Assembly (NCBI GenBank): GCA_018857735.1
Contig: JABMCL010002423.1
Location: 221,001-285,000, forward strand
Length of the DNA stretch: 64,000 nucleotides
DNA from: Alviniconcha marisindica
Taxonomy: Eukaryota; Mollusca; Gastropoda; Provannidae
Direction of reading: 5' to 3'
The position numbers and the translations under genes are program-made. The number at the start of each line of letters is the position of its first letter. The stretch's first letter is position 1. Of this stretch, positions 34,748 through 37,700 are shown in pieces. The notes beneath the pieces are model-generated. The model worked only from the letters and a program-made list of their open reading frames with translations. It was not told the DNA's origin and did not search any database.

Positions 34748-37700
34748 ACGCACACACACACACACACAACTTAGGATATTTTCAACATCTTGACTTCTGA
34801 GCTGCTAAAACCATGGGTACCTTTTCCAAATTGTTGATGAGGTAAAATCATACTGACTTGCTACATGCATATAAGATATATGACTGACCTTCTTTCAAGG
34901 TCACAGTAATTAAATATTCAATCTGTAGCAAAATCTTTTACATAAATTACAGTATTCTGCTGCTGGTCATGGGATATTGTTTTGCAGTTTAATTTCACAG
35001 TACTCTGGCATTCTGCTGTCAAAACTGTATGCATACTACTAGCATAGATATCTTGAATGTGAGTCAGTTTGGCATTTTCTCTTCTTTTGAATACCCTTTC
35101 GCATCTATAGGGAGAGGTCAGTAGTAGCAGTTGTTAGAGATGTGTTGCACAACTTACTATTCAAAATGTTATTACATTTCTTTCTGATGTAGAAAAAGTC
35201 ACAAGAACTTGTTCCACCTTTTGCTGACATGGATTTTATACCTCTTTCAATTCATAAGAAGATTTTGAGAAGAACCAGTTATTTGTGGAAAATAATACTG
35301 TTCAGAAAGTCTTTCCTTTGAGTTTGAAAAGTCTGTTGCCCAGTAATGAGTTCCTGTATACCTGTGCAGCTAAATAGAAAGTGGACCAAGTAAGCACCAG
35401 CTCATATGACCTGTAGTTGGTCCTCATCAACCAGTAGAAGGGCACAGCAGGCTGTCAGTATCAAGCTTTTAGCCTTCTTCCCAAACTGCTCAGAGGTTTA
35501 AATATTTTCAGGCTTTTTCCCTCCTCCAATTCTGTAGATGGGCAGTGGTGAACCCATTGCTTTTTCCAGCCCTATTTGCCAGCATTACTAGTGCAAGTGG
35601 CCACATGTGGATACGTGTACTAGAAATCAGCATGTATACGCATCTTTATATTCCTGAGTCACCTTACCCACTCTTCTGTTAATACTTTGCTTCTCTTGAA
35701 TAAATCAAGGGAAAATATTGTCCATCATCTGATCAGCAGCTCAATGATAGGTTGATCAGATTTGAAAATTACTGCATGATTATGTGAACTTGATGACATG
35801 AATTGATTAAAATTGCCATATGATTTATGTTGATTTGCACGGTTTAATGCATGCTCCTTATTTTCCTTGTGCATGCAGGGATTCGGTTTCGTAACTTTCG
35901 CAAATAGTGCGGATGCTGACCGAGCACGAGAGAAATTGAACGGCACGGTGGTTGAGGGACGAAAAATTGAGGTGCCTGCATGATTATTTACTATATGTGG
36001 TAGCACTACCTCAAAAAGTGCTAAGTACAGTATGAACTTCTATCTGTGCAGTATGAAGAAATGCCTGCTCATTGTTTGTGCTCAGTGTGTTCAGTGTTTT
36101 CCGTTCTTTTGTGAAACGGTAGCAATCAGAAAGTTTTCTTACTGCCTCCCATCTAATTTTCAAATTTTTCAAATTTTTAATGCTCTCAGGGAAAGGGAGA
36201 GTAAACCAAAAGTGATTCAGCCTTTTAGAATCCAGTGTTTGCGGTCATGCAATTTGTTGGAAGTTCATGTTAAATGCACGCAGTGAGTTACCTGGTACTT
36301 TTGCCTCATCTGTGCATTATATATTTATAAATGTGTTTTGGCATTTCTTGATGCTGTCCTTTCAGTTGTGATGGTACATTTGACTCTTTATTAATGTTGT
36401 TGCTAGTTTTATAGAGTGGTGAAGTATTCAGCATATAAATAACAGTTTTTCTTCATCTTGATAGTGATAAATACACCGAAACCAGCAAACTTGGAGCCTA
36501 AGAATGAGTGTATTTGACAGGAATTCTTAAATAGGTAGGTAGGTGTCAATATTGCCCAAGAACTTGAGTGTGTTTTGCTAACAATTTTAATGTTATTCCA
36601 TGCTGTGCTGTGTGCCATCTTTCATGAATACAAATTACAGTGCAGGCAAGTATCAGTCCACTTTGACAGACTTTCTGTTTTTGCCTGAATGACAGGGTGT
36701 AATTTTGGAAAGTGTCAAGTATAGAACAAGAAAGCAGTCATACAATGGCAGTGTTGTAGACAAAATAAGTACATATGTCTGATGCATGGGAACAGAATGT
36801 CTCAGTAGCTGCTCTTACTCATGTTTTGTTCATGTTAAGTGCCAGTATGTCTCAGTCATTATTTTTTAAAGTTCTTAAATGATTTTTCTTCTTCTTCCCA
36901 GTTGATTATTATCTAGTCACTGCCTTAGTAATTTATAGTGTTTTTTGTTTTGTTTTTAGTCATTAAGTTGATCTGTTTCCCCAAAAATACTAGAATTTGT
37001 TTTGTGCACATTAAAGATGGCACAGCACAGATAAACAACAAAAACAAGACTTTTTCTAAACTGTTTCTATTTGCAAGTCTTCCAAATGGATCATTCAAAA
37101 TATTTTGCATGGGCATTTAGTATCACTGCTTGAAATAAAAACTGTTGTGACTTACAATCTATACATCTAAAAAGGTGTGGGATCGGGGATTTGTTGTTAC
37201 AGGGGATGGGGGAGGTAAACAGATGGGATCCATTTAGGTACTAAACAGTTTGTTTGCCTTGCATTCATTCCAGTTGTGTACTGTCATTCAGTGGTGTTAG
37301 TAATTACACATGAAATGAAGAAGGTTGCAGCATATATATGTGTGATGCTAATTTTTAATCAGAGAGGTAATAAATCTGAGGATAGAAGCAGGTGCTGTGG
37401 GAGGGACTCTAAATGAATGTAATGTGATCAGTATGGGTTGTAAGCATTTTGATTTCTATTTTTATTCTAAAATAAATTGTTATTAAAAATGATAATGCTT
37501 TTTAAAATGATAATTAGTTGCTTTTTTTCTTTTCTTCAGTGGCGGTGGGTTGTGTATGTGTATATTAAACAGATGGGTTGGGGGCAGGGTGTTTGAATTC
37601 AAAGGAGGGTAGTACTCAGTTGCAGACCAAATGAAAGCAATCAAAAGAAAGAAGTGCTATTTTTGTTGTTCAGATGTAGAGTAGGTTATCAAATAAATGA

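What the first reader, a model, noticed from the sequence alone, without database searches (positions are those of the whole stretch)
35773..35982. Rbfox appears to regulate splicing of its own RNP1 exon through a TGCATG cluster
The 93-nt exon has four TGCATG motifs within 210 nt, one touching the acceptor and one 6 nt past the last exon base, and the only donor in the gene (gtgcct) that departs strongly from consensus. Skipping keeps the frame and removes RNP1. In mammals Rbfox proteins repress the orthologous 93-nt exon by the same kind of site, giving dominant-negative protein. Seeing the same exon size and site layout in a likely mollusc suggests that the feedback loop is very old, or that it arose more than once.
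Basis: partly seen in the sequence, partly recalled or inferred. Interest (0 to 1): 0.82.

Follow-up and report, generated by a model that had tools for sequence, protein, structure and literature searches.

The report
Snail Rbfox self-regulated RNA-binding exon
In a sea-snail gene for the splicing regulator Rbfox, the exon that encodes half of its RNA-binding domain carries Rbfox's own binding motif at both ends, a layout seen in many other animals and known from mammals, so this looks like an ancient feedback loop found in a new lineage rather than a new mechanism.

Summary
The 93-nt RNP1 exon (35879-35971) of the one Rbfox gene found in this 818-Mb genome has TGCATG at 35773, 35848, 35870 (abutting the acceptor CAG) and 35977 (intron base +6); skipping keeps the frame. 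Its donor is weak, but two others in the gene score lower. The cluster alone is weak evidence: about 2% by chance placement, and similar geometry recurs 207 times genome-wide. Conservation decides. Contig ORFs that read through the intron edges show ATG CAG at the acceptor in 49 of 59 deduplicated cases with both introns, and a TGCATG-compatible donor edge in 80 of 98. Exact exon-skipped proteins are annotated in ten mollusc species, including Littorina saxatilis, the closest named relative, and in an annelid, a brachiopod, arthropods and vertebrates. Best explanation: Rbfox represses its own RNP1 exon and so makes an RRM-defective isoform. This is published for mammals, with an equivalent exon in Drosophila, so the snail is a new member of a known loop. 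Repression and dominant-negative action in this animal are inferred, not shown.

The parts
35879..35971 (+). 93-nt cassette exon C, phase 0, encodes RNP1 and the second half of the Rbfox RRM
   Evidence: 100% match found once in the genome
35773..35778 (+). TGCATG site 1, 106 nt upstream of the exon
   Evidence: too far upstream to be covered well by the conservation survey
35848..35853 (+). TGCATG site 2, starts at -31; a compatible site at -39 to -25 is seen in 24 of 44 ORFs
35870..35875 (+). TGCATG site 3, abuts the acceptor CAG (35876-35878)
   Evidence: CMQ edge in 38 and other xMQ edge in 11 of 59 deduplicated ORFs with both introns
35977..35982 (+). TGCATG site 4, starts at intron base +6 and overlaps the donor edge
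   Evidence: donor-edge compatible motif in 80 of 98 deduplicated ORFs
35972..35977 (+). weak donor gtgcct of exon C
   Evidence: score 0.1 with recalled frequencies
31745..31798 (+). upstream exon B (54 nt), QFGPILDVEIIFNERGSK
39468..39528 (+). downstream exon D (61 nt), VNNATARVMTKKVAAPTIPN
30825..30971 (+). exon A, first part of the RRM (PKRLHVSNIPFRFREADLRQLLG)
40923..48853 (+). C-terminal coding exons E 40923-41082, F 41841-41901, G 43042-43148, H 44801-44870, I 48809-48853 (with stop)
17440..17676 (+). N-terminal coding region of the same gene, 97% identical to Littorina over 79 residues (match limits, exon limits not refined)

Best explanation
This is the autoregulated RRM cassette exon of a snail Rbfox gene. 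When Rbfox protein is plentiful it binds UGCAUG upstream of, at the acceptor of, and at the donor edge of its own 93-nt exon and competes there with the splicing machinery, so that the exons ending at 31798 and starting at 39468 are joined in frame. The product lacks RNP1 and the second half of the RRM; by analogy with mammals it binds RNA poorly and damps full-length Rbfox. Shown: motif positions, frame-keeping geometry, recurrence of the exon-edge motifs with the same exon in other animals, annotated skipped isoforms in relatives. Inferred: Rbfox occupancy, repression and dominant-negative action in this animal.
For: Motifs and frame. The gene is Rbfox: RRM matches human RBFOX1 chain 4zka at 158 bits; one Rbfox gene found in the genome. 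Acceptor edge ATG CAG in 49 of 65 deduplicated ORFs with an independent upstream start, 49 of 59 with both introns. Donor edge TGCATG-compatible at +2, +4 or +6 in 37, 35 and 8 of 98; at any other position at most 2 records. Exact skipped junction in 105 of the 120 proteins listed of 4618, ten mollusc species among them. In mammals Rbfox3 lowers Rbfox2 exon 6 inclusion from 92% to 39-48% in 293T cells, and the in-frame product is called dominant negative (PMC3126832, passages).
Against: The cluster alone is not rare enough to stand by itself. Not every lineage keeps the motifs: 10 of 59 ORFs lack ATG CAG at the acceptor and 18 of 98 lack the donor-edge motif. Codons do not fix every base, nearly all the ORFs are unnamed, and related species are not independent. 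Skipped proteins are gene models, not reads, and the search favoured them. Downstream Rbfox sites, and a site at a weak donor, can promote inclusion (PMC5577181; PMC13158602; passages).
Confidence: 0.85

Rival explanations
1. The donor-edge site helps the weak donor instead of blocking it, so that Rbfox promotes inclusion there while the upstream sites repress: a two-way homeostat, or positive feedback.
For: PMC13158602 (passages): Rbfox at the weak 5' splice site of MYH9 exon A2 promotes inclusion. PMC5577181 (passage): downstream binding favours inclusion, upstream binding skipping. The cassette donor is weak.
Against: Three of four sites are upstream or at the acceptor. In mammals supplying Rbfox3 increases skipping of the orthologous exon (PMC3126832).
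Confidence: 0.1
2. The palindromic TGCATGC copies matter as RNA structure: sites 2 and 3 pair in a hairpin that hides the acceptor, with or without Rbfox.
For: A 7-bp stem 35848-35854 / 35871-35877 is the best fold of 35844-35885, -9.6 kcal/mol; in a 150-nt fold site 2 pairs instead with the donor-edge site.
Against: Not better than shuffles: z -1.29 (23 of 200 as stable), -0.81 (41 of 200) and -0.70 (51 of 200) for the three stretches. The acceptor motif is kept in ORFs without a compatible upstream partner.
Confidence: 0.03
3. Chance, or an artefact of gene callers that begin ORFs at the ATG next to the exon; no regulation.
For: The cluster alone has about a 2% chance in the window. Of 134 ORFs with upstream sequence, 55 start at the edge codon itself.
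Against: Those 55 were left out; ORFs with an independent upstream start still show ATG CAG in 49 of 65. The donor edge has no such start bias and is 80 of 98.
Confidence: 0.02

Closest known systems
Mammalian Rbfox RRM exon (Rbfox2 exon 6; the 93-nt exon) and its delta-RRM dominant-negative isoform (Damianov and Black 2010, not held, recalled; Dredge and Jensen 2011, PMC3126832, passages)
   Same: Same part of the RRM, same exon length, in-frame skipping, Rbfox motifs at the splice sites (the last for mammals from memory, and from VHV-type donor edges of named deer and fish records).
   Different: One Rbfox gene here instead of three paralogues that cross-regulate; the donor-edge site sits at +6, with vertebrate-like ORFs reading as +2; Rbfox dependence is untested in the snail.
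Drosophila Rbfox (A2bp1) RRM exon
   Same: PMC3126832 (passage) says that an equivalent alternatively spliced exon exists in the Drosophila Fox homologue; flanking Fox sites there are recalled from the 2010 abstract.
   Different: ORFs with the RLHG exon type, which I take to be insect or other arthropod, put the donor-edge site at +4 (VCM) rather than +6.
Splicing-factor autoregulation through nonsense-mediated decay (for example PTB and SC35, named in PMC3126832)
   Same: An RNA-binding protein alters the splicing of its own pre-mRNA.
   Different: Skipping here keeps the frame and predicts a shortened protein rather than a decayed mRNA.

Membership tests
Rbfox autoregulated RRM exon | The gene encodes an Rbfox-type RRM | tested here: met
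   4zka (RBFOX1) 158 bits, 2err 154 bits; up to 90% identity to Littorina Rbfox
Rbfox autoregulated RRM exon | Frame-keeping 93-nt exon that encodes RNP1 | tested here: met
   the RRM profile match shrinks from positions 2-69 to 2-37 in the skipped Littorina form
Rbfox autoregulated RRM exon | (U)GCAUG elements at or overlapping both splice sites | tested here: met
   35870-35875 abuts the acceptor CAG; 35977 starts at +6
Rbfox autoregulated RRM exon | Exon-skipped transcripts exist | tested here: inconclusive
   Annotated in ten other mollusc species; no reads and no data from the window's own species
Rbfox autoregulated RRM exon | Rbfox protein represses inclusion of the exon | not testable with these tools
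   Needs minigene or knock-down; shown in mammalian cells (PMC3126832)
Rbfox autoregulated RRM exon | The delta-RRM protein binds RNA poorly and acts as dominant negative | not testable with these tools
   Only the truncation of the RRM is seen here

The most novel reading that the evidence does not exclude
The exon-edge Rbfox sites are one inherited non-coding regulatory element, kept since the bilaterian ancestor in molluscs, arthropods and vertebrates at the price of a poor donor. The donor-edge site has slid between registers +2, +4 and +6 without being lost, and it disappears where the upstream intron is lost and the exon can no longer be skipped alone.
Probability: 0.6. Interest if true: 0.5.

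Novelty: new member of a known kind. Interest (0 to 1): 0.38.

Why it matters
It extends a mammal-and-fly feedback loop to molluscs, in an animal with apparently one Rbfox gene, and gives a rare case in which a splicing-control element can be matched position by position between phyla. The register shifts of the donor-edge site, and its absence in ORFs without the upstream intron, make selection for exon skipping testable by comparative genomics.

Tried and rejected
DNA of relatives: pattern scans of viral and prokaryote contigs gave no usable Rbfox exon. Searches found 0; one search found one contig of a bacterial MAG, not read, which I take to be a chance match in a bacterial gene. Conservation was therefore read from translated contig ORFs. 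Rfam found nothing at its gathering scores in the window. The hairpin idea was folded and is not above shuffles. The genome-wide geometry search was meant to show rarity and did not. ORFs that start at the edge codon were dropped from the acceptor count for bias. The absence of the donor motif where the upstream intron is lost rests on 16 rows of one exon type, perhaps one lineage; it is a lead only. Six paper searches (open-licence PMC only) listed no paper on this exon in molluscs; in the one with 'mollusc' as a term, none of the 12 listed of 71 holds the word. That is not proof of absence in print. One listed paper on Drosophila Rbfox1 (PMC8742874) was looked through for autoregulation and gave only reference-list passages; PMC3536703 likewise bore on another gene.

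Full report
What is there. The window lies at C2266:221001-285000 of an 818-Mb genome and holds most of an Rbfox gene on the + strand. I modelled exons at 30825-30971, 31745-31798, 35879-35971, 39468-39528, 40923-41082, 41841-41901, 43042-43148, 44801-44870 and 48809-48853; they join into one open frame and match a Littorina saxatilis Rbfox protein piece by piece, with a further N-terminal match at 17440-17676 that is 97% identical. The highest-scoring protein is a Littorina isoform, 90% identical over 269 columns; an unnamed record is 91%. The animal is therefore probably a caenogastropod snail. The exon has one DNA match in the genome. In a protein search the matches at 84-94% identity are the three RRM exons of this gene, and the other eleven are 34-43% identical, as expected of other RRM genes (only the best candidates are scored there).

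The motif cluster. TGCATG stands at 35773, 35848, 35870 and 35977; no other hexamer has four copies in those 210 nt. With 48 sites on this strand, four or more in 210 nt somewhere in the window came up in 424 of 20,000 uniform placements, and in 2 of 200 Markov simulations that carry 32 sites on average. The pattern TGCATGCAG, 78-108 nt, GTNNNTGCATG matches 98 + 109 times in the genome, against 2 + 12 for the reversed control; many of the listed places are repeats. The cluster by itself is weak evidence. GCACG, a secondary Rbfox motif from memory, also occurs at 35837 and inside the exon at 35924 and 35943.

The donor claim. With recalled splice-site frequencies, donors A to H score 4.0, 8.6, 0.1, 5.0, -1.1, 5.4, 3.3 and -2.6. 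The cassette donor is weak, but it is not the only weak one.

Conservation read from translated contigs. Gene callers run on unannotated contigs translate straight across exon edges, so the codons show the intron bases beside the exon. Two searches gave 180 distinct proteins: 120 listed of 323 and 120 listed of 341, the second with X-padded flanks so that flanks could not steer the ranking. Six lacked the core motif and were dropped, leaving 174. Upstream: 39 continue into the preceding exon, 1 starts at the exon, 55 start at the edge codon itself and were left out, and 79 have an independent upstream start, 65 after deduplication. Of these 65, 38 end CMQ (TGY ATG CAG), 9 GMQ and 2 RMQ; 16 lack ATG CAG. 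With introns on both sides it is 38 + 11 of 59. A further TGCATG-compatible site lies at -39 to -25 in 24 of 44 (24 of 41 with a stricter length rule), against 3 of 58, 7 of 34, 3 of 22, 0 of 16 and 1 of 15 in the other 15-nt bins; the window's site 2, at -31, falls there. Downstream: 28 of 174 run into the next exon; 146 read intron, 98 after deduplication. Of the 98, 37 are compatible with TGCATG at +2 (GTGCATG), 35 at +4 and 8 at +6 as in the window; 18 are not. At any other position at most 2 records are compatible. Of 17 rows in which the upstream intron is lost but the downstream one is read, 16 lack the donor motif; the exception, P0124, is a spliced fish gene model. Those 16 share one exon type and may be one lineage. 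Named vertebrate records, deer RBFOX2 P0123 and the fish P0124, read VHV at the donor, compatible with GTGCATGT but also with GTGCACGT. Limits: third codon bases are mostly unseen, nearly all the contig ORFs are unnamed (the phylum labels are mine, from exon residues), and related species are not independent.

Skipped isoforms. A search centred on the exon-skipped junction matched 4618 proteins of 195 to 619 residues. Of the 120 listed, 105 have the exact junction, 14 contain the 31-residue exon and 1 (Elysia) contains it with 7 extra residues (a stricter expression missed one horseshoe-crab record). By the names the skipped ones include ten mollusc species (Littorina saxatilis, Pomacea canaliculata, Babylonia areolata, Mya arenaria, Ruditapes philippinarum, Ostrea edulis, Crassostrea virginica, Magallana gigas, Potamilus streckersoni, Pinctada imbricata), the annelid Paralvinella, the brachiopod Lingula, the fluke Opisthorchis, spiders, a scorpion, ticks, horseshoe crabs, insects, fish, birds and reptiles. 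These are database models, some of them plain gene predictions; I saw no reads. The query favours skipped forms, so 105 of 120 is not a frequency.

Effect on the protein. The skipped Littorina isoform P0181 matches the Pfam RRM only at profile positions 2-37, the full one P0196 at 2-69. RNP1 is gone.

What is known. [quoted passage not shown] That paper is not held; from memory its abstract says that Fox elements overlap the splice sites of the 93-nt exon and flank the fly exon. PMC5577181 (passages) reports rat Rbfox2 clones lacking 93 nt in the RRM and states that upstream binding favours skipping and downstream binding inclusion. PMC13158602 (passages) reports Rbfox at a weak donor promoting inclusion, which feeds the main rival. 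PMC4971515 (passages) also calls the exon 6-lacking form dominant negative.

Verdict. It is a known feedback loop in a new lineage. What this work adds is breadth: the acceptor motif, a donor-edge motif in three registers, and an upstream site near -30 recur with the same exon in very different sequences. An origin before the bilaterian split is the simplest reading, but real DNA should be aligned before that is claimed.

Noticed in passing
35848-35877: Sites 2 and 3 are self-complementary and form a 7-bp stem with the pyrimidine tract in the loop; not more stable than shuffles (z -1.29).
   Followed up: partly
40888-40893: Another TGCATG lies 35 nt upstream of coding exon E (40923), at a distance like that of site 2 from exon C.
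   Followed up: no
24515-24833: A second TGCATG cluster, four within about 320 nt (24515, 24604, 24642, 24828), deep in an Rbfox intron.
   Followed up: no
window introns at about 30972-31744 and 41083-41840: Littorina isoforms carry two further small in-frame inserts (between exons A and B, and between E and F) for which no convincing counterpart was found in the window.
   Followed up: partly
protein P0199 (Elysia crispata): Model with seven extra residues before RNP1: an alternative upstream acceptor or a wrong model.
   Followed up: no
proteins P0029, P0030, P0095, P0106, P0137-P0139, P0143, P0144, P0146, P0147, P0149, P0150, P0176, P0179, P0180: ORFs in which the RNP1 exon is fused to the preceding exon and the donor-edge TGCATG is absent: 16 rows of one exon type.
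   Followed up: partly
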